From Clostridia bacterium (GTDB lineage: Bacteria > Bacillota > Clostridia > Christensenellales > Borkfalkiaceae), in NCBI GenBank assembly GCA_017456055.1, contig JAFTKC010000003.1, positions 1 to 42,206 of the forward strand: 42,206 bases of DNA, given 5' to 3'. Under the pieces are notes generated by a model that had not been told where the DNA came from, did not search any database, and saw only the letters and a list, made by a program, of their open reading frames with translations. Made by a program: the position numbers and the translations under genes. This document shows positions 10,430 to 25,973 of this stretch, one piece after another; the stretch's first letter is position 1, and each line of letters opens with the position of its first letter.

Positions 10430-10444
10430 TAAACGTAAAATAAA

Positions 10445-10473
10445 AACCCTTTCATTGAAAAATGAAAGGGGTT
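10445..10473. terminator. Bidirectional terminator between mgtE and mscL
   Basis: AACCCTTTCATT pairs with AATGAAAGGGGTT around a GAAA loop. T-rich tracts follow on the plus strand and A-rich sequence precedes it, so it can end both the convergent mgtE and mscL transcripts. Confidence 0.85.
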
Positions 10474-10485
10474 AATTTTTTTGTT

Positions 10486-14346: not shown

Positions 14347-14400
14347 AGAACGTAGAAAATATAGGGCAACAACCTTTTTACGCCCTTTTTGGAGGATTAT

Positions 14401-16368
14401 ATGGATAATATTAAACAGACTACCGTAAACGCAATTCGCGTGCTTTCGGCAGAGGCTATCCAAAAGGCAAACTCCGGTCACCCCGGCATGCCACTTGGCG
14501 CTGCTCCGATAGGCTACTCAATTTTTACCAATATGGTATTTAATCCAAAGGACACTGCTTTTGACAATAGAGATAGATTCGTTCTCTCTGCAGGACACGC
14601 TTCTATGCTTGACTACTCTCTCTATTATCTCTTCGGCTTTGGCTTAACTAAAGAAGATATTATGAACTTCCGTCAATTAGGCAGTCGCACGGCAGGTCAC
14701 CCAGAATACGGCGTATGCCCTGGCGTTGAAACTTCTACAGGCCCACTCGGTCAAGGTATTGCAAACGCAGTTGGTATGGCTATTGCTGAAGATTATTTAG
14801 CAAATAAGTTTAATAGAGAAGGCTTCCCTATCGTTGACCATTACACCTACGCTCTTTGTGGCGACGGATGTATGCAAGAAGGTATAGAAAACGAAGCAGC
14901 ATCTCTTGCAGGCGCTCTAAAGCTCGGCAAACTTATCGTGTTCTACGACGATAACGATATAACTATCGAAGGCTCAACCGACATTACTTTCACCGAAGAC
15001 GTTGGCAAACGCCACGAGGCTCTCGGCTGGCAAGTTATTAAGGTTAAAGACGCTAACGATTTAGGCGCTATCAATCGCGCAATCAAAAAGGCTAAGGCTG
15101 AAAAGGAAAAACCATCACTTATTATCTGCAAGTCTGAAATCGGTTTCGGCTCACACTTACAAGGTAAAGCAGGTTGCCACGGCGCTCCTTTAGGCGAAGA
15201 AGGCGTTGCAACCCTAAGAAAGAATCTCGGTTGGGATTACCCTGCATTTGAAGTTCCAGAAGAAGTGTTCAAGCATTGCAAGAAGTTTGCAAACAAAGGT
15301 AGAAAGGCTCAAAGATTATGGAAAGCGCTCTTCAAAGATTACGCTGAAAAATATCCTGAACTTGCTAAAGAATATATCGATTGGAAGAAGAAAAAACTTC
15401 CAGACCTTAAATCTATCGAAGAATTGTGGACTTATGAAAAGGACGATGCTTCGAGAGGCTACGGCAACACCGTATTAAATAAACTTGCTAAATACGTTCC
15501 AAACCTTATTGGTGGTAGCGCAGACTTAGCGCCTGCAAACAAAACCAACATTAAGGCTCGTGGTGGATATTCGGCAGTTGACAAGAGTGGCTCAAATATG
15601 GCTTTCGGTATTCGTGAACACGCTATGGCTGCAATTGCAAACGGCATGTATTTACACGGTGGTTTAATTCCATACTGCGCAACCTTTGCAGTTTTCTCTG
15701 ACTATATGAAAAACGCAATGCGTATGTCGGCTATTATGGAAATTCCAGTTATCTACGTTCTAACCCACGATTCAATCGGCGTTGGTGAAGACGGACCTAC
15801 CCACCAACCTATCGAACACCTTGCAGGACTTCGCGCAATGCCAAACCTTAGAGTTTATAGACCTGCTGACGGCAGAGAAACTACTGCCGCTTGGATTAGC
15901 GCTATAACTGGCAAAAATCCATCTTGTCTATTCTTATCAAGACAAACTCTTCCACAACTAGAAGGATCTGGCGAAAAGGCGTTCAAGGGTGGATATATCC
16001 TTGCTGATTCAGCAAAGAAAGTTCCAGACGCTATCATTATGGCAACCGGTAGTGAAGTAGTTCTCGCTATGGACGCTAAGAAAGCGTTAATGGAAGAAGG
16101 AATTGACGTTAGAGTAGTTTCAATGCCTTGCGTTGAAGACTTTGAGGCTCAAAGCGAAAAATATAAAGAGAGCGTTCTTCCATCTAAGGTACGCGCAAGA
16201 GTTGCCGTTGAGGCAGGCGCTACTATGAGTTGGTATAAATACGTTGGTCTTGACGGAAAGATTGTTGGTATCGACACTTTCGGCGCTTCAGCACCTGCTA
16301 AGAAGTTGTTTGAAAAATTCGGCTTCACCACTAAAGCAGTAGTAGACGCAGTTAAAGAAACTCTTTAA
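14401..16368 (+). CDS. tkt: Transketolase
   Basis: Thiamine-diphosphate enzyme of the non-oxidative pentose phosphate pathway that moves two-carbon units between sugar phosphates. The 655-residue single-chain form has the N-terminal motif ANSGHPGMPLGAAPIGYS, the TPP/metal motif GDGCMQEGIENEAASLAG (about 153-170), IVFYDDNDITIEG, and the pyrimidine domain with FGIREHAMAAIANGM (catalytic Glu) and THDSIGVGEDGPTHQP. The ATG at 14401 has GGAGG 5 nt upstream. An in-frame ATG at 14389 lies before this SD. It is a monocistronic unit with a strong promoter and terminator. Codon use is somewhat more GC-rich than its neighbours, as expected for a highly expressed gene. Confidence 0.97.
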   Translation: MDNIKQTTVNAIRVLSAEAIQKANSGHPGMPLGAAPIGYSIFTNMVFNPKDTAFDNRDRFVLSAGHASMLDYSLYYLFGFGLTKEDIMNFRQLGSRTAGHPEYGVCPGVETSTGPLGQGIANAVGMAIAEDYLANKFNREGFPIVDHYTYALCGDGCMQEGIENEAASLAGALKLGKLIVFYDDNDITIEGSTDITFTEDVGKRHEALGWQVIKVKDANDLGAINRAIKKAKAEKEKPSLIICKSEIGFGSHLQGKAGCHGAPLGEEGVATLRKNLGWDYPAFEVPEEVFKHCKKFANKGRKAQRLWKALFKDYAEKYPELAKEYIDWKKKKLPDLKSIEELWTYEKDDASRGYGNTVLNKLAKYVPNLIGGSADLAPANKTNIKARGGYSAVDKSGSNMAFGIREHAMAAIANGMYLHGGLIPYCATFAVFSDYMKNAMRMSAIMEIPVIYVLTHDSIGVGEDGPTHQPIEHLAGLRAMPNLRVYRPADGRETTAAWISAITGKNPSCLFLSRQTLPQLEGSGEKAFKGGYILADSAKKVPDAIIMATGSEVVLAMDAKKALMEEGIDVRVVSMPCVEDFEAQSEKYKESVLPSKVRARVAVEAGATMSWYKYVGLDGKIVGIDTFGASAPAKKLFEKFGFTTKAVVDAVKETL

Positions 16369-16382
16369 TTATTAGTAAAAAT

Positions 16383-16410
16383 AAAACCCTAGCAAAACGC
16401 TAGGGTTTTT
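16383..16410. terminator. Bidirectional terminator between tkt and the first XRE gene
   Basis: AAAACCCTAGC (16383-16393) pairs with GCTAGGGTTTT (16399-16409) around a 5-nt loop, with T tracts in both directions. Confidence 0.88.
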
Positions 16411-16435
16411 AATTTTTAAAATATACTCAATACTT

Positions 16436-16654
16436 TTATTTCTCACGACCAACCAATTCGTCTAAAGATACGCCGTAAAAATCGGCAAGTTTAACGCAAA
16501 AATCAATACTTGGCAAAATCTTCCCACTCTCCCACCTGCTTACGTTTTGATGAGACGTGTTAATTTTGTTTGCCAATGCCGACTGACTTAAACCAAGCCT
16601 TTCTCTTTGTTCTTTGAGTGCTTCACCATAATTCAAAGTTGTTTTTTCTTCCAT
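16436..16654 (-). CDS. XRE-family small repressor, module A
   Basis: 72-residue single-domain helix-turn-helix protein of the Cro/CI (XRE) type. The HTH is LGLSQSALANKINTSHQNVS followed by RWESGKILPS. It ends KLADFYGVSLDELVGREK, nearly the same as the neighbouring XRE protein. The start MEEKTTLNYG at 16654 is chosen because TATAAT ends 6 nt before it and no SD exists, so the mRNA is probably leaderless. The protein probably binds the 16-bp palindrome TGCAC-N6-GTGCA upstream and an imperfect copy over its own -10, controlling itself and a strong divergent promoter. It has no dimerisation or ligand domain beyond the HTH core, so it resembles phage or toxin-antitoxin repressors in size. Confidence 0.85.
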   Translation of the reverse strand: MEEKTTLNYGEALKEQRERLGLSQSALANKINTSHQNVSRWESGKILPSIDFCVKLADFYGVSLDELVGREK

Positions 16655-16665
16655 ACTCGTATTAT

Positions 16666-16709
16666 AGTACATTTATGTGCAAAATACTTGACTTGCACTT
16701 TTTTGTGCA
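16666..16709. promoter_or_regulatory. Two predicted operators of XRE module A
   Basis: A perfect palindrome TGCACTTTTTTGTGCA (16694-16709) lies within the 17-bp spacer of the divergent plus-strand promoter. A second 16-bp site, AGTACATTTATGTGCA (16666-16681), matches it imperfectly and overlaps the -10 of the repressor gene. The sites are 28 bp apart start to start. The binding protein is inferred from position. Confidence 0.65.
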
Positions 16710-16716
16710 GTATAAT
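16688..16716 (+). promoter_or_regulatory. Divergent promoter of module A
   Basis: TTGACT (16688-16693), a 17-bp spacer and TATAAT (16711-16716) on the plus strand, opposite to the XRE gene. The spacer is almost entirely the TGCAC-N6-GTGCA palindrome, so repressor binding should block it. Confidence 0.7.
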
Positions 16717-16722
16717 ACAACT

Positions 16723-16790
16723 GCATATTTCTTGTTGTCACACAACGTAAATAAAAAAAGAATAGCGTCCTTGCTATTCTTCTCTTAGGG
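16723..16790 (+). ncRNA. Predicted short non-coding RNA of module A
   Basis: The divergent promoter should start transcription near 16723. The first 60 nt contain no ATG and no SD. The stretch from 16732 (TTGTTGTCACACAACGTAAA, then A-rich) is conserved with the module B copy at 17113. It ends in a hairpin (AAGAATAGC pairing with GCTATTCTT) followed by only a weak T tract (TTCTCTT). It would also be partly antisense to the 3' trailer of the second XRE mRNA. Expression is inferred, not shown. Confidence 0.45.
16752..16787 (-). terminator. Terminator of the second XRE gene
   Basis: On the minus strand AAGAATAGC pairs with GCTATTCTT over a 6-nt loop and is followed by seven T residues and ATTT. 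The same hairpin may end the opposite short RNA less efficiently. Confidence 0.8.
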
Positions 16791-16818
16791 TTTTATCTTT
16801 TAACTTCGCTCAATACTT

Positions 16819-17022
16819 TTATTTCTCTCGCCCAACCAATTCGTCTAAAGAAATACCATAATAATCTGCGAGTTTAATGCAATTTATTATGCTTGGTTCA
16901 CTTTGTCCTTTTTCCCATTTGTATAAGTTTTGGTGCGATATCTTTAATTCTTTTTCTATGTCGTATATACTTTTATTGTTTTCTACCCTTGTTAATTTTA
17001 AGTTTTCGCCTACTTTTTTCAT
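16819..17022 (-). CDS. XRE-family small repressor, module B
   Basis: 67-residue XRE-type helix-turn-helix protein. The HTH is SIYDIEKELKISHQNLYKWE followed by KGQSEPS. The C-terminus KLADYYGISLDELVGREK matches module A almost exactly, and the DNA around the stop codon (CTCAATACTTTTATTTCTC) is shared too, showing duplication of the whole cassette. The recognition-helix region differs between copies, in line with different predicted operators. Unlike module A this gene has an SD (AAAGGAG) 6 nt before the ATG. It is divergent from a consensus promoter whose spacer holds a 16-bp palindrome. No partner protein gene is adjacent. Confidence 0.85.
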   Translation of the reverse strand: MKKVGENLKLTRVENNKSIYDIEKELKISHQNLYKWEKGQSEPSIINCIKLADYYGISLDELVGREK

Positions 17023-17044
17023 AATTTCTCCTTTTAATTATTTT

Positions 17045-17089
17045 AGCAATTTTATTTGCTAATTGTCTTGACAAGCAATTTTAATTGCT
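17045..17089. promoter_or_regulatory. Two predicted operators of XRE module B
   Basis: Two near-identical 16-bp sites: AGCAATTTTATTTGCT (17045-17060) and AGCAATTTTAATTGCT (17074-17089), the second with perfect 7-bp arms. They are 29 bp apart start to start. The second fills positions 1-16 of the 17-bp spacer of the plus-strand promoter, and the first lies upstream of the repressor gene. Confidence 0.72.
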
Positions 17090-17096
17090 ATATAAT
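17068..17096 (+). promoter_or_regulatory. Divergent consensus promoter of module B
   Basis: Perfect TTGACA (17068-17073), 17-bp spacer, perfect TATAAT (17091-17096). Two perfect hexamers are uncommon and suggest a strong promoter that must be repressed. Confidence 0.8.
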
Positions 17097-17102
17097 TTAA
17101 AC

Positions 17103-17175
17103 GTAAACTTTTTTGTTGCTACACAAAGTTAATATAAAAAAAGAATAACGGAAAAAACCGTTATTCTTTTTAATT
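17103..17175 (+). ncRNA. Predicted short non-coding RNA of module B
   Basis: Transcription from the consensus promoter would begin near 17103 and end about 70 nt later at the hairpin AAGAATAACGG pairing with CCGTTATTCTT, followed by a T tract. There is no ATG or SD. The stretch from 17113 (TTGTTGCTACACAAAGTTAA, then A-rich, then AAGAATA) matches module A at about the same distance from the -10 (16 versus 15 nt). Conservation of this stretch between copies with different operators suggests the RNA is the functional product. Expression is inferred. Confidence 0.5.
17138..17171. terminator. Bidirectional terminator between module B and the ABC transporter
   Basis: AAAAAGAATAACGG pairs with CCGTTATTCTTTTT around six A residues. 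T tracts on both strands let it end both the short plus-strand RNA and the minus-strand ABC transporter message. Confidence 0.85.
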
Positions 17176-17192: not shown

Positions 17193-19784
17193 TTACTTTT
17201 TAATTGCGTCTACAGGGTTTAATCTCGTAATTCTAAATAGTGGAATAAACGCTAGTAGTGGCATAACTATAAAGGTCATAATAACCATAAACGAATATGA
17301 TACGGGGGTTAAAACGAAGAAAGTCATTCCCACCATACCACCAACCGAATTAACCATAATGGAAGTATTAGCAAATCCCACGAACCAAGTGGCAACGCCA
17401 AATCCAAGTAAAAAGGCTATTAAAGCAAGCACTAGAGTTTCTATGATAAACGTTTTCTTAAGTTGACTACTGCTCGTTCCAAGCGCTTTTAGTATACCGA
17501 TTTCCTTAGTTCTAGCAGAAACGCCGAAAGAAATAAGGTTAATTAAAAGTAATACAGACGTTGCAAGGGCAACCACTAGTAGCACCAAGAATATGCTTGC
17601 TAGTTGCTTAGCCATAGATTCAAACATATATAGAGTTGAACCTAGTTCGCCACTAATACCCGTTGAATAGTCTTCTCTAAGTTCGGCGATAACGTCTTTC
17701 ATTTTTGCTTGGTCAACGACGTTTATCAAGATGTTTTCGTTGTTGAATACTAGCTTATAGTCTTCATCTTTAGGAAGATTTTGCGTATCTCTTAAATAAA
17801 GGAATTGGTTTAGGCTATAATCGTTTGGATAGTAAACGCCTTTAAGAATTAGTTTATCGCCTGCATAGAAGTTTTTATCAATCGTGTCTTTTGTAAAACG
17901 CAAATCAAACTCTTCTCCAAAGTGAGTAGGCGTGCCTAACTGATCCACGGTTATACCTTTTTGCTCCATATCTTCTGCTGAATATTCTGGAAGTTTATTG
18001 TCGGGGAACAACTCGTTATATGCGTGCACGGATAATAAAGCTTCCGTGCCCACGATAGTCGGAGAGCCTTGTCTTAGCCCCTCTTCCGTAAACACTCTAA
18101 TGCCATATCCTAAGTGAGCGCAAAAACCATCGGTCAATTTCTTTTCTATATCGCCAACCTTTACACTATAACCAAATCCCCTATTTCCCTTAGTGCTCAC
18201 GTTTACGTCACCAGAAATAGTATTATAGGTAGATTTAGTCATAAACAATGCGCCTACTATATTTTTAACAGTCATCTTTTGTTTTAGATCAGGTCTTGAG
18301 TTAAAGTATAGTTGATAATCAAATTCGCCGTCGGCGACTGAATCTATTAACCCCGACTTAATTATTCCGTTAATTAAGAAAGCCTTTCCACCTTTATAAA
18401 GAATTTTACCCGAAAGATTAGCAAAGTTGCTCTCATCCCCTTGATAAGATTCAATTTTAGTATAATCTATCTTGCTTCCGTCATAAATGTCATCAAAACT
18501 AACCCCTTGTTTACATGCGTAAATTTCAGCGCCCGTTTTTCTAAAAATTCTATAGGCAACGTCGGTTAGATAAACGCCGTTTTTGTTAAACTTACTATTT
18601 TCATAGAGTCCTAAGCCAAGGTCTATAACGTCTTGCTCGGCTTTAATAATATATCCGTTAATCGCCACTTCGTAGTGAGTTCCCATGTCTTCAGGATTTG
18701 TTTTGTCCTTATAGTAAATGGACGCCGAATTAAATCCATTAATAGAGTGCCCAGATGCGTACTTTACTGCCGAATTATTCTCTAAATAATCGTAAACCTT
18801 AAAGTTATCAATCGCACCCATCATCATAAAGCCACCGGTGTATTGCGAAGCCCCCACCGTTTCGAGAGTAAACTGCGAAATGTTGTTGTCTTTTGCCGTG
18901 TAATAAATATCTCTTTCACTATTAAAGTCAAAGAATACGTGCATACCACAAGTAAACATTAGCATTATAACGGTGGAAATAATGGTGATTATAGTCTTAA
19001 ACTTTTTCTGCGTTAAGTTGCGAAGAGCAAGCCTAATTGAATAACTAAACGGCATTTTCGCTTGTTTATTAAATTCTAACTTCTCTTCCTTTTCCTTTTC
19101 TTTTTGGAATTCACAATCGCTAACTACTTTTCCGTCTGCAATTTCAACTATTCCCTCGCCGAATTTATGTGCGTTCTCTTGGTCGTGAGAAACGACTACA
19201 ACTAACTTTTCTTTAGAAATTTCTTTTAAGAGATTGAAAACTTCTTCACCTGTTTCAGAGTCAAGGTTGCCGGTCGGCTCGTCGGCAAGAATAAAGGAAG
19301 AGTTTTTAACTATTGCTCTTGCAATAGCAATACGTTGCTTTTGTCCACCCGAGAGTTCGTTTACCTTTCTCTTTCCGTAGCCCTCAAGTCCAACAGTTTT
19401 GAGCGCCTTTTCCACTAGTTCAGCGTTTGCTTCCTTATCCTTTTCCCCTTGAAGTCTTAGCGCGATTTCTACGTTAGTTGCAACGTCAAAGTCATCTATT
19501 AGGTTATAGTCTTGGAAGATAAAACCTATCTCTTGGTTTCTATAATTTTCAAAATCACGCTCGGTAAAATCTTCAAAAGTCTTGCCCTTATAAGAAATCG
19601 TGCCACTGTCGGCCTTATCAAGTCCACCAAGAACGTTTAGCAAGGTACTTTTACCACTTCCACTCTTTCCTAAAATAAAAAACAAGCCCTTGTTTGGAAA
19701 AGACAAACCAACGCCTTTTAGCGCCGTGCAGTCAGTTCCCTTTTTGGACCTGTAAGTCTTAAAAACGTCTCTTAAAACTATCAT
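17193..19784 (-). CDS. ABC transporter, fused ATPase and FtsX-type permease (MacB-like)
   Basis: 863-residue fusion. Residues 1-220 form the ATPase, with Walker A GKSGSGKS at 39-46, [14 protein letters not shown] at 144-157, [12 protein letters not shown] and a VSHD switch motif. After a linker, the first transmembrane helix (about 255-275) is followed by an extracytoplasmic region of about 380 residues and three helices near the C-terminus (from about 720) forming the FtsX/MacB permease fold. Such proteins usually act in mechanotransmission, lipoprotein or peptide export or antimicrobial-peptide resistance. The substrate cannot be told. No two-component system is adjacent. It has its own promoter and lies upstream of the XRE modules. 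Confidence 0.9.
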
Positions 19785-22391: not shown

Positions 22392-23642
22392 TTATTTTCT
22401 TCCGTAATCTACATTATCCACCTTTCTATCTCTAAGCGAAGTAATTGGGTTAGGCTTATCTTCGTATCTATAATCTTTTCCACATTTTTCAATATGCTTT
22501 TCAATAACTTTATGGGAAGCAACCGATTCGGTTGGCTTAGTTGCCGTTTGATTATACTTAAAAAACGGCGCTTTTTCATCTAATTTGTCCACTCTCTTAT
22601 AGTCTTCTCTATCGGCAGTATAGTTGCCCGTTTCTTTAAGCACCTTTCTAACGTATTCTTTATTTTCGCCGAACTTAAGAAGTTCTGGAAACTCTGCACC
22701 CGTAGGGAAGAGTTCCATATAGTCTTTATTTTCGTACTTTTCCAAAAGTTTACTTGCCTTTTGAAGATGCGCGCACTCTTCTAGATAGAACTCGTACCAT
22801 AGTTTTTTAATATCCTCGTTAGATTCGTCTTCAAAGCAACTATAATACAAGTAGCACTCGGTATACTCGTGCATAACTAAGCACTCTAGCCACGAGCAGT
22901 TGGTGTCTATTAAACTTCCGTATTGAGAAACGTGTTGCTCTTCTATCATAGCGATTTCGCTATATAGGTTTCGCCCTAACTCGCTTGGATAAAAGTTTGC
23001 TTGATTCATATAGAAGTTCATAGTTTGTTGCTCTGCAGCAGTTATAATATTGACGGTCAATTTGGTAAATAGGTCTGCCTTTTTAGAGTTAATATAGTTT
23101 TTAATCTCATCGGCTGGATATCGGTGCTCGGCAATAGTCGGTCTTCCCGGCATGACTTCGGTGTAATAGCCTAATAGATTTTCTGCCTTTATCCCTTCGT
23201 CCATTTCCAAAAGGTTAGCGTATCTAAAAACGTGGTCAAAGTCTTCTAGAAGTGCAAAGTTAAGTGCGTTTTTAACCTTAGGGTCGGTTGCCCTTTGGGC
23301 TAAAATTGCCGTCAGTTCTACGGCTAGTTGTTCGTAGCCTATGGTGTGTTGCAATACCGTTTCGTCTATCGGCTTTAATGACGCTATCTTTTTTTGTTGC
23401 TGTTGTTCTCTTCTTCTAATAAGCGCGATTTCTCTTCTTAGAGCGTTATCAGGACAATGCCTTGAAAATTGGTGCGAAAACCAGTTTGCCTCAAATTCCG
23501 TGCCGTTCATTAAAATAATTCTAACCTTAGTAAACGGACTCGTACTTTTACTATCGTAAGGTTTTAAGGCAAGTTTTTTAAAACTCTCATAACTTTTTTC
23601 TATTGGTTTGGTTTTTTGGTTAAATGGATTGATTTTTTGCAT
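22392..23642 (-). CDS. Ferritin-like protein of unknown function, paralogue 1
   Basis: 416 residues, soluble, no signal peptide. I recognise no named family. It contains helices with Glu and ExxH-like signatures in three successive sections: GYEQLAVELTAIL with LLEDFDHVFRYANLLE (about 102-145), AAEQQTMNFYMN with AMIEEQHVSQY, and HEYTECYLYYSC with LEECAHLQKASKLLEKYE. Paired Glu and ExxH helices are the pattern of carboxylate-bridged di-iron ferritin-like bundles. A conserved front section (KVRIILMNGTEFEANWFSHQ) and tail (IEKHIEKCGKDYRYEDKPNP) are shared with the paralogue at 24684. The ATG follows GGGGG. It has its own promoter and terminator. Possible roles include iron or oxidative-stress handling, but this is only inference. 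Confidence 0.7.
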   Translation of the reverse strand: MQKINPFNQKTKPIEKSYESFKKLALKPYDSKSTSPFTKVRIILMNGTEFEANWFSHQFSRHCPDNALRREIALIRRREQQQQKKIASLKPIDETVLQHTIGYEQLAVELTAILAQRATDPKVKNALNFALLEDFDHVFRYANLLEMDEGIKAENLLGYYTEVMPGRPTIAEHRYPADEIKNYINSKKADLFTKLTVNIITAAEQQTMNFYMNQANFYPSELGRNLYSEIAMIEEQHVSQYGSLIDTNCSWLECLVMHEYTECYLYYSCFEDESNEDIKKLWYEFYLEECAHLQKASKLLEKYENKDYMELFPTGAEFPELLKFGENKEYVRKVLKETGNYTADREDYKRVDKLDEKAPFFKYNQTATKPTESVASHKVIEKHIEKCGKDYRYEDKPNPITSLRDRKVDNVDYGRK

Positions 23643-24683: not shown

Positions 24684-25973
24684 ATGAATCCGTTTAATGA
24701 AAAACCTATCAATTTACTGAGTAGTTTTCAAAATTGGAAACAACTTTATCCAAAATCGTACGATAAACACGAAGTAGACCCGTACACCAAAACTAGAATA
24801 ATACTTATGAACGGCACGGAATTTGAAGCAAACTGGTTTTCGCACAATATGGCACGTCACGTCACAGACAACGATTTGCGAAGGGAACTAGCCGTCACTC
24901 GTTCGATTGAAAAGCAACAACAAATAAAAATATCTCTATTAAAGCCTTGTGACGAAAGCGCCCTAGAACACACCATAGGCTACGAGCAATTAGCCGTTGA
25001 CTTAACTGCAGAACTAGCCAAAAGAGAAAGCGATTGCTACGTAAAAAAAGCGCTCGACTTTGCGCTATTAGAAGACTTCGACCACTTATATCGCTACGCT
25101 AACCTTTTAGAAATGGACGAGGGAATTAAAGCCGAAAGATTAGTTGGAAGATACACCGAGATTATGCCGGGTAGACCTACTATTGCCCACCATCGCTTTA
25201 ATAAAGATAACGTAAAACGTGGAATAAATTCAAAGACGGCAGATAAGCAAACGGTGTTAAACACTATGATAATAACCGCAGCCGAACAACAAACGATGAA
25301 TTATTATATGAACATAACCAATCTTGCGACCAACGATTTAGCACGCAAGGTTTATATGGAAATTGCCCAAGTAGAAGAAGAGCACGTCACCCAATACGAG
25401 TCGCTTATGGACTCAAGCGCTTCTTGGCTTGAAATGCTATTGTGGCACGAATATTGCGAATGCTATCTCTACTGGTCGTGTATGGTCACTGAAACTGACG
25501 CATACGTAAAATCTCTTTGGGAAGAAAACCTTGAGATAGAGATTTCTCATCTCAAGAAAGCCTGCGAACTCTTAGAAAAATACGAGGGCAAAACTTGGCA
25601 AGAAGTGATCCCCGACGGCGAATTTCCAGCGCCTATTTCTTTACACGAGAATATTCAATACGTTCGCGATATTTTGGATACTACCGTGCAATTTACCGGA
25701 CTTTTAGACGACTACGTAAAACTTAGCGAACTACCTAGTGACGCAAACTTCTTCCAATATCAAAATATTATAAACCCAACTATTGAAATAGTTCCAAGCC
25801 ACCTAGTTATAGATAAACATATCCGTGGCTACGGCAAAGATTATCGCTTTGAAACGGCCCCTAATCCCGTAAAAGAACTACGCAATAGAACGGTGGATAA
25901 TACACAAGTAGGAAGAGTTCCCTATACGGCAACTAGCACGGACTTTTTCTGCAACTTCAATAAAGAAAAATAA
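24684..25973 (+). CDS. Ferritin-like protein of unknown function, paralogue 2
   Basis: 429 residues and clearly homologous to the 22392 product over the full length. Shared segments include RIILMNGTEFEANWFSH, KPCDESALEHTIGYEQLAV, EIMPGRPTIA and YGKDYRFETAPNP. Candidate metal ligands fall in three sections: E101 with E130/H134, E201 with E231/H234, and E256 or E259 with E286/H289. This is consistent with three helix pairs of ferritin-like type, more than a single four-helix bundle. AGGGGGAA lies 5-8 nt before the ATG. The last 15 residues (TATSTDFFCNFNKEK) extend past the paralogue. It is on the opposite strand to its paralogue, with the SDR gene between them. Function is unknown. Confidence 0.7.
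   Translation: MNPFNEKPINLLSSFQNWKQLYPKSYDKHEVDPYTKTRIILMNGTEFEANWFSHNMARHVTDNDLRRELAVTRSIEKQQQIKISLLKPCDESALEHTIGYEQLAVDLTAELAKRESDCYVKKALDFALLEDFDHLYRYANLLEMDEGIKAERLVGRYTEIMPGRPTIAHHRFNKDNVKRGINSKTADKQTVLNTMIITAAEQQTMNYYMNITNLATNDLARKVYMEIAQVEEEHVTQYESLMDSSASWLEMLLWHEYCECYLYWSCMVTETDAYVKSLWEENLEIEISHLKKACELLEKYEGKTWQEVIPDGEFPAPISLHENIQYVRDILDTTVQFTGLLDDYVKLSELPSDANFFQYQNIINPTIEIVPSHLVIDKHIRGYGKDYRFETAPNPVKELRNRTVDNTQVGRVPYTATSTDFFCNFNKEK

What the first reader, a model, noticed from the sequence alone, without database searches (positions are those of the whole stretch)
16414..17175. Twin XRE-repressor modules with divergent short conserved RNAs: candidate undescribed regulatory system
Two cassettes lie side by side. 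Each has a roughly 70-residue XRE protein (both end KLAD[FY]YG[VI]SLDELVGREK) and, divergently, a strong promoter leading into a non-coding stretch of about 65-75 nt with no ATG or SD. The RNA core is conserved: TTGTTG-YNA-CACAA-GT-AAT, then A-rich, AAGAATA and a hairpin. It starts 15 and 16 nt after the two TATAAT boxes. DNA flanking the XRE stop codons is also shared, so the whole cassette was duplicated. Conservation of a non-coding core next to diverged repressors and operators suggests the RNA is a product under selection. The hairpins also serve as terminators for minus-strand neighbours, which could explain part of the similarity.
Basis: partly seen in the sequence, partly recalled or inferred. 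Interest (0 to 1): 0.8.

Follow-up and report, generated by a model that had tools for sequence, protein, structure and literature searches.

The report
Repressor-locked small RNA cassette
Two neighbouring cassettes each pair a small phage-type repressor gene with a short stretch that looks like a non-coding RNA with a conserved hairpin; related gut bacteria carry the same element at other places, some under unrelated repressors, so the RNA itself looks like the working part of an undescribed system whose function is unknown.

Summary
Each cassette has a 67-78 aa XRE repressor gene and, divergently, a near-perfect sigma-70 promoter with operator-like dyads, then about 70 nt without ATG, closed by a hairpin. 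Related Clostridia metagenome genomes carry the arrangement at other sites: I count 20 copies in 15 genomes, one decayed. The conserved part is a small hairpin, NNGU-[YGNNAM]-ACNN, 15-23 nt after the -10 box in 17 of 19 copies. Its outer base pairs covary (36 of 38 formed; 20 of 22 in a thinned set, P about 0.001), though energy folding finds it in only 3 of 9 RNAs. Strongest result: RNAs 84-91% identical sit beside repressors 19-30% identical; a covariance model without repressor or operator letters (R1) found two of these swapped copies, and R2, with the promoter added, a third. The XRE1-type repressor resembles RstR-like repressors of temperate ssDNA phages. Rfam has no match above threshold. 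Most likely a small trans-acting RNA is held silent by an exchangeable, phage-derived repressor. Target and inducer are unknown and no transcript has been shown. Closest precedents: CreTA and Bartonella Brt/Trp; neither membership is met.

The parts
16436..16672 (-). XRE1 repressor gene (78 aa as listed; likelier start 16654, 72 aa), RstR-like
   Evidence: N-terminal extension absent in G016 and G019 orthologues
16667..16681 (.). probable operator 1a (GTACATTTATGTGCA, imperfect copy)
   Evidence: sequence; matching paired sites in orthologues L023-L025; binding not shown
16693..16709 (.). probable operator 1b, TGCAC-N6-GTGCA, inside promoter 1
   Evidence: sequence; conserved in L023-L028; below the dyad cut-off
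16688..16716 (+). promoter 1, TTGACT-17-TATAAT
   Evidence: 11 of 12
16723..16790 (+). small RNA 1, ends inferred (start about 7 nt after -10, end at terminator hairpin)
   Evidence: inference from promoter and hairpin
16732..16745 (+). conserved hairpin UUGU-UGUCAC-ACAA
   Evidence: energy folding prefers a shifted register
16752..16787 (.). terminator hairpin of RNA 1; terminator-like by scan on the minus strand only
16819..17022 (-). XRE2 repressor gene, 67 aa; N-terminus diverged from XRE1, C-terminus alike
17045..17061 (.). probable operator 2a, AGCAATTTTATTTGCTA
   Evidence: D3
17074..17090 (.). probable operator 2b, AGCAATTTTAATTGCTA, inside promoter 2
17068..17096 (+). promoter 2, TTGACA-17-TATAAT
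   Evidence: 12 of 12
17103..17175 (+). small RNA 2, ends inferred
   Evidence: inference from promoter and terminator
17113..17126 (+). conserved hairpin UUGU-UGCUAC-ACAA
17138..17171 (.). terminator of RNA 2, terminator-like on both strands; faces the convergent ABC transporter gene
16408..16571 (.). 3' flank and C-terminal coding part of XRE1, homologous to 16791-16954 (local duplication)
16791..16954 (.). 3' flank and C-terminal coding part of XRE2, second copy of the duplicated block
16383..16409 (.). transketolase terminator; boundary of the insertion
   Evidence: no RNA-type cassette in 27 other genus loci readable behind transketolase

Best explanation
Each cassette is a two-part switch. 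A small RstR-like HTH repressor binds operators in the divergent intergenic region and holds down a strong promoter. When the repressor is lost or inactivated, the promoter makes a roughly 70-nt non-coding RNA: an A/U-rich 5' leader, a small hairpin with a conserved loop, an A-rich linker and a terminator hairpin. The RNA, not a peptide, is the product and acts in trans, with the hairpin and loop as its active part. Shown by sequence: the architecture, the hairpin's conservation and covariation, different insertion sites, and exchange of repressors around a conserved RNA. Inferred: transcription, repression by the adjacent HTH protein, trans action, inducer and target. The own genome carries a local duplication in which two paralogous RNAs came under two repressor/operator pairs of different sequence.
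For: Promoters, dyads and hairpins. Covariation: 94.2% of cells paired in 13 sequences and 95.6% in 17, 0 of 500 shuffles, slid versions at most 59.6%. Outer pairs alone: 36 of 38 in 19 members; with by-eye members and near-identical copies removed, 20 of 22 in 11 sequences, P about 0.001. Of 102 scorable XRE loci, 36 had no divergent ORF and 9 of these carry the core; 66 had an ORF and 1 of these does, a spurious 27-aa ORF in a member (Fisher P 0.0003). Repressor swap: long-form RNAs 84-91% identical beside repressors 19-30% identical; one repressor is HTH_26-type with no BLASTP match to XRE1. The same locus in G027 and G024 carries different adjacent repressors. Non-coding: no ATG in either window RNA; a 1-nt indel inside the long form shifts any frame. 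Empty sites. Repressor kin: NCBIfam RstR best hit (below cut-off) and ssDNA-phage repressors.
Against: No transcript, binding or phenotype data. The stem is 4-5 bp; minimum-energy folding forms it in register in 3 of 9 RNAs (own2, G019, G209), in a shifted register in own1, and not in 5. Only two of four pairs vary, so 'pairs with a change on both sides' does not exceed shuffles (251, 271 and 423 of 500). The structure was written from these sequences and 2 members were chosen by eye. The motif is small: a perfect copy lies by chance inside an ORF (L365), and R2 gives 36-38 bits to viral stretches I judge to be chance, as much as to G746b (37.7), G001b (35.3) and G024b (32.4), which I accepted on stem, RNA similarity and a divergent HTH gene. 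One copy (G026, behind groEL) has no adjacent repressor and no orthologue of the expected one was found in that 76%-complete genome. The G001b copy is truncated inside the hairpin. 4 of 19 copies contain an ATG, in G024b and G406 upstream of the hairpin and in the same frame (and reading).
Confidence: 0.6

Rival explanations
1. The RNA is a toxin or abortive-infection effector: the repressor is a phage-type sensor/immunity protein, and its loss or its inactivation by an infecting phage releases a hairpin RNA that stops growth, as CreT does when CRISPR-Cas is lost.
For: Strong promoter with operator-like dyads; solitary cassettes at different sites; repressors exchanged around a conserved effector; repressor kin among ssDNA phages. 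CreT precedent: a hairpin RNA whose stem complementarity and loop matter (PMC10097628, passages read).
Against: No toxicity data. No SD/start codon or rare-codon mini-ORF as in CreT. A copy without adjacent repressor persists in G026.
Confidence: 0.2
2. An ordinary base-pairing regulatory sRNA that tunes a few host mRNAs; the repressor is simply its regulator.
For: Size and layout (5' leader, hairpin, terminator) are typical of sRNAs; leader positions -4/-3 prefer U/C (12 and 14 of 19).
Confidence: 0.4
3. Remnant of the phage early region: an old divergent leader left when the early genes were lost, kept only by hitch-hiking with an immunity repressor.
For: Repressors resemble RstR; in the inovirus and microvirus records read the divergent promoter precedes phage ORFs.
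Against: No promoter-plus-core match in the 6 phage records read; covariation and repressor exchange indicate selection on the RNA.
Confidence: 0.08
4. The hairpin is a DNA site (protein-binding or recombination site), not an RNA element.
For: Cassettes sit at different sites; G005 and G016 copies are flanked by exact repeats holding a terminator.
Against: Arms change sequence together while the asymmetric loop letters G2 and A5 stay, unlike a DNA dyad; the hairpin keeps 15-23 nt from the -10 box in 17 of 19 copies.
Confidence: 0.06
5. The transcript encodes a tiny peptide.
For: The core can be read as NNG-TYG-NNA-MAC in one frame, and two copies (G024b, G406) have an upstream ATG in that frame (read).
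Against: 15 of 19 copies contain no ATG in the stretch entered and I see no SD; a 1-nt indel separates G027/G024a from G001/G026/G024b with conserved flanks; stem covariation.
Confidence: 0.04

Closest known systems
CreTA (CRISPR-repressed RNA toxin)
   Same: Promoter kept silent by a dedicated repressor; product is a very small hairpin RNA whose stem pairing matters (PMC8501985 and PMC10097628, passages read)
   Different: Repressor here is an HTH protein, not CreA-Cascade; no SD, start codon or rare-codon mini-ORF in the window RNAs; toxicity unknown
Bartonella Brt/Trp (multicopy sRNA with XRE genes)
   Same: Family of small RNAs each paired with an XRE gene, several copies per genome (PMC8070961, passages read; PMC5387305, listing and start of abstract only)
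   Different: There the RNA lies upstream in tandem and attenuates the XRE gene in cis; here it is divergent and behind its own operator-bearing promoter
RstR-family repressors of filamentous phages (CTXphi type)
   Same: Best NCBIfam match of both proteins; in inovirus records a repressor gene divergent from other phage genes
   Different: Score below the curated cut-off (60.1 and 43.9 against 80); no phage genes beside the window cassette; promoter drives an RNA
BswR-rsmZ (XRE regulator acting on an sRNA) in Pseudomonas
   Same: XRE-type regulator acts through a small RNA (PMC3985676, listing and start of abstract only)
   Different: No relation in sequence looked for; whether the genes are adjacent was not checked
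svsR, prophage sRNA limiting phage infection
   Same: Phage-linked small RNA with a host effect (PMC12803456, abstract and outline)
   Different: Lambdoid prophage of E. coli; no comparison of sequence made

Membership tests
RstR family repressor (NCBIfam NF041951) | score at or above curated cut-off 80 bits | tested here: not met
   60.1 (XRE1) and 43.9 bits (XRE2), best match of each but below cut-off
RstR family repressor (NCBIfam NF041951) | encoded within a filamentous phage | tested here: not met
   neighbours are transketolase and an ABC transporter
CreTA | repression by a CreA RNA with CRISPR-repeat analogues and Cascade | tested here: inconclusive
   the adjacent regulator is an HTH protein and the direct repeats listed are the duplicated cassette and short operator or A/T-rich copies; no search for cas genes was made
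CreTA | mini-ORF with start codon (rare codons or SD) plus stem-loop | tested here: not met
   no ATG in either window RNA; no SD on reading; stem-loop conserved
CreTA | RNA is toxic | not testable with these tools
   needs an expression test
Bartonella Brt/Trp | RNA directly upstream of and in tandem with the XRE gene, attenuating it | tested here: not met
   RNA and XRE genes are divergent
Any Rfam 15 family | score at or above gathering threshold | tested here: not met
   over RNA 2 the best match is SpF25, 24.6 bits against 48, and over RNA 1 none up to E 1; among 16 relative loci only a T-box passes, at L074 1206-1438, outside the RNA
Type II toxin-antitoxin | toxin protein gene beside the HTH antitoxin | tested here: not met
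   the large ORFs beside XRE1/XRE2 are transketolase and an ABC/FtsX protein; small overlapping ORFs of 50-61 aa listed there were not tested
Small regulatory RNA (general kind) | own promoter, no ORF, terminator, conserved structure | tested here: met
   by sequence only; RNA 1 terminator weak on the plus strand
Small regulatory RNA (general kind) | a transcript of that size exists | not testable with these tools
   no RNA data available here

The most novel reading that the evidence does not exclude
A protein-repressed RNA effector system: a conserved hairpin RNA, toxic or anti-phage, kept silent by interchangeable phage-type repressors that act as infection sensors. An incoming ssDNA phage or its antirepressor lifts repression and the RNA shuts the cell or the phage down; swapping repressors retunes the trigger while the RNA effector stays constant.
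Probability: 0.18. Interest if true: 0.87.

Novelty: new variant of a known kind. Interest (0 to 1): 0.65.

Why it matters
It would add a small RNA family without a match in Rfam 15, in uncultured gut Clostridia. The layout is unusual: the RNA is the constant part and the repressor is exchanged, the logic of effector/sensor modules such as toxin-antitoxin or abortive infection (comparison from general knowledge). If the RNA is toxic or anti-phage, it would be an RNA effector locked by a plain HTH repressor rather than by CRISPR-Cas. Even as an ordinary sRNA it gives a portable two-part switch of about 380 bp with repressor/operator pairs of different sequence.

Tried and rejected
Rfam: only sub-threshold matches over the RNAs. 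Rescored with R2, L189 has 38.3 bits but two of four stem pairs broken and no divergent HTH gene seen; L202 has 36.0 bits and all four pairs, but reads as coding sequence; L205 has 30.5 bits at a likely start codon; L193 has a divergent HTH ORF but 22.2 bits. I judge these chance by reading, not by a test. Patterns for the long and short forms gave 16 and 23 viral stretches, none matching R1. R1 hits L365 (inside an ORF) and L363 (a terminator-like hairpin right behind a gene end) were rejected by reading. Of 31 R2 hits outside the first seven listed, all inspected, 4 are members (L421 decayed, L422, L425 = the known L091, L442); I rejected 27: ordinary promoters, leaders of protein genes, a tRNA, a CIRCE-like groES leader (L434), the XRE/ORF locus L432. 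The searches above 40 genomes used stricter filters; one search missed the members G424, G314, G397 and G417, so copy counts are lower bounds. A resemblance of GUCACAC to the 16S rRNA decoding region came to mind from memory; it was not tested and is not used. Paper searches showed, in the rows listed, no XRE-controlled sRNA cassette of this kind; subscription papers and preprints are not held.

Confidence went from 0.62 to 0.60 and interest from 0.66 to 0.65 for the weaker folding and the high chance scores.

Full report
What is there. The window is contig C20 of a 1.385 Mb genome in 26 contigs; relatives found by the XRE1 protein are records titled mostly as MAGs of Clostridia or Clostridiales, several from ruminant guts. 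Between transketolase (14389-16368, +) and an ABC/FtsX protein (17193-19784, -) lie two small HTH_3 genes on the minus strand. Each has a divergent near-consensus sigma-70 promoter (12 of 12 and 11 of 12). Dyads sit in and beside each promoter: TGCAC-N6-GTGCA for cassette 1 and two copies of AGCAATTTTAATTGCTA-like sites for cassette 2. After 15 and 16 nt comes the core, and a hairpin closes a stretch of about 70 nt. The hairpin of RNA 2 is terminator-like on both strands, that of RNA 1 only on the minus strand by the scan. There is no ATG on the plus strand of either.

Duplication. The two cassettes share their 3' flank and XRE C-terminal coding part (71% over 164 nt) and the RNA body (37 of 44 nt), but the repressor N-termini share only 13 of 41 residues, against 20 of 26 in the C-termini, and the operators differ. 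A local duplication followed by replacement or fast divergence of the DNA-binding half and its operators fits this (inference). AAGAATA plus terminator is shared because of the duplication; terminators of other members differ.

Other genomes. XRE1 relatives at 61-85% identity in G005, G016, G019, G026, G001, L091 (same sequence as G746:C30) and G209 have a divergent promoter, no ORF seen, and a short leader, hairpin and terminator-like hairpin. A profile of these repressors over 398 family genomes and 60 fetched stretches added G424, G314, G397 and G417, the last two picked by eye. Of 145 distinct XRE-like ORFs, 34 had no promoter by my rule and 9 too little sequence; of the 102 left, 66 had a divergent ORF and 36 none. 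The strict core occurs in 9 of the 36 and 1 of the 66, the latter a spurious 27-aa ORF in member G424 (Fisher P 0.0003). Recurrent partners in the ORF class are small proteins of about 90 aa: of five scanned, three match DUF6809 and two Cys-rich ones match nothing in Pfam.

The hairpin. Aligned almost without gaps, the cores read NNGU-YGNNAM-ACNN. With 13 and 17 sequences, 94.2% and 95.6% of cells pair, 0 of 500 shuffles reach this, and slid partners give at most 59.6%. The count of pairs with a change on both sides (2) does not exceed shuffles, since only two pairs vary. The inner U-A never varies and G-C holds in 16 of 17, so the evidence is in the outer two pairs: 36 of 38 formed in 19 members; 32 of 34 without the two picked by eye; 20 of 22 in a thinned set of 11, P about 0.001. 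Loop G2 is in 19 of 19 and A5 in 17 of 19. The distance from the -10 box is 15-23 nt in 17 of 19; the others are G314 with 9 and G024b, which I entered as 10 but is 8 from its TAAAAT box. Against: minimum-energy folding forms the hairpin in register in 3 of 9 RNAs, shifted in own1, and not in G005, G016, G026, G001 and L091.

Repressor exchange. Model R1 (-10 box to hairpin, no repressor and no operator) over 398 family genomes gave 14 places in 11 genomes; of 6 new ones, 4 are members (G027, G024a, G406, G026b) and 2 I rejected. R2, which adds the -35 and the promoter spacer, over 40 relatives and 396 order genomes added G024b, G746b and a decayed G001 copy. R2 scores of about 30-38 bits also occur by chance, so these rest on stem, RNA similarity and the divergent HTH gene. 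That makes 20 copies in 15 genomes, 19 used; G000, G001, G024, G026 and G746 have two each. Of the 7 copies found by model rather than by repressor, 6 have a divergent small HTH gene; G026b behind groEL has an operator-like dyad but no adjacent gene, and no orthologue of the G001b repressor was found in that 76%-complete genome. The long-form RNAs of G001, G026, G027, G024a and G024b are 84-93% identical. Between G001/G026 and the other three (RNA 84-91%) the repressors are 19-30% identical. The G024a repressor is HTH_26-type with no BLASTP match to XRE1. G027 and G024 hold the RNA at the same locus with different adjacent repressors.

Site. Transketolase was found in 40 of 44 genus genomes; 30 loci were returned, 29 besides the own. 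Two of the 29 end within 65 nt of the stop (L322, L344) and one has 245 nt (L345). Behind the 27 readable ones no XRE1/XRE2-like gene or member RNA was seen. Other HTH genes do occur there: L329 (G025) has an XRE gene driving a zinc-ribbon protein, with a weak R2 match of 22.9 bits at its promoter; L335 has an HTH_26-like gene, L318 and L342 weak matches. G019 has its cassette between mscL and mgtE, which are direct neighbours here at 10430-10485. The G005 copy is flanked by an exact 39-bp repeat holding a terminator, the G016 copy by a 28-bp one. In the shown part, whose output was cut, I noticed no recombinase gene beside the cassettes.

Repressor origin. The best NCBIfam match of both window proteins is the RstR family, below cut-off. 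The nearest phage records are inoviruses and microviruses (54% and 51%). In the six records read, five of them ssDNA phages, no promoter-plus-core match was found. So the repressor is phage-type; the RNA is not shown to be phage-borne.

How it probably works. Shown by sequence: architecture, conservation, covariation, repressor exchange. Inferred from the family: the HTH protein represses the promoter, and perhaps its own gene. Inferred: loss or inactivation of the repressor releases the RNA, which acts in trans through the hairpin. What it acts on is unknown. CreT RNAs show that a hairpin of this size can be a potent effector (PMC8501985 and PMC10097628, passages), but their start signals are absent. 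Bartonella Brt/Trp pairs XRE genes with a multicopy RNA, but in tandem and in cis (PMC8070961, passages).

Verdict. A real element, under selection by the evidence here; a candidate new small RNA family under exchangeable phage-type repressors; function open.

Noticed in passing
L053, L085, L088, L238, L243, L257 and others: The same XRE family often has a divergent small protein ORF instead (DUF6809-like, or a Cys-rich protein of about 88 aa), in L085 and L088 also between housekeeping genes: a wider class of XRE plus small effector units. No paper naming DUF6809 in the library.
   Followed up: partly
L088 2986-3680 / L289 (G238:C20): Three XRE genes of this family in tandem, about 220-240 bp apart, beside one Cys-rich small protein gene.
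   Followed up: no
L082 2842-3281; L083 2876-3284: Exact 39-bp and 28-bp repeats containing a terminator hairpin flank the cassette on both sides, as if insertion had duplicated the terminator.
   Followed up: partly
L329 3608-4240 (G025): Behind transketolase, where the own genome has its RNA cassettes, this relative has a different XRE gene with a divergent zinc-ribbon protein gene.
   Followed up: partly
L078, L099, L279, L295, L265, L056, L312: Other XRE loci without an ORF close behind the divergent promoter and without a clear copy of the hairpin; possibly other RNAs.
   Followed up: partly
L189 6125-6198: Viral contig with a consensus promoter, AGTCGTGACAC and a terminator-like hairpin, 38.3 bits with R2, but two stem pairs broken and no HTH gene seen.
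   Followed up: partly
L360 1180-1787: Besides the divergent HTH_26-type repressor, a second XRE gene converges on the RNA from its other side.
   Followed up: partly
window 22392-23642 (-) and 24684-25973 (+): Two look-alike proteins of 416 and 429 aa encoded divergently, with a dehydrogenase-like gene between them (read, not tested).
   Followed up: no
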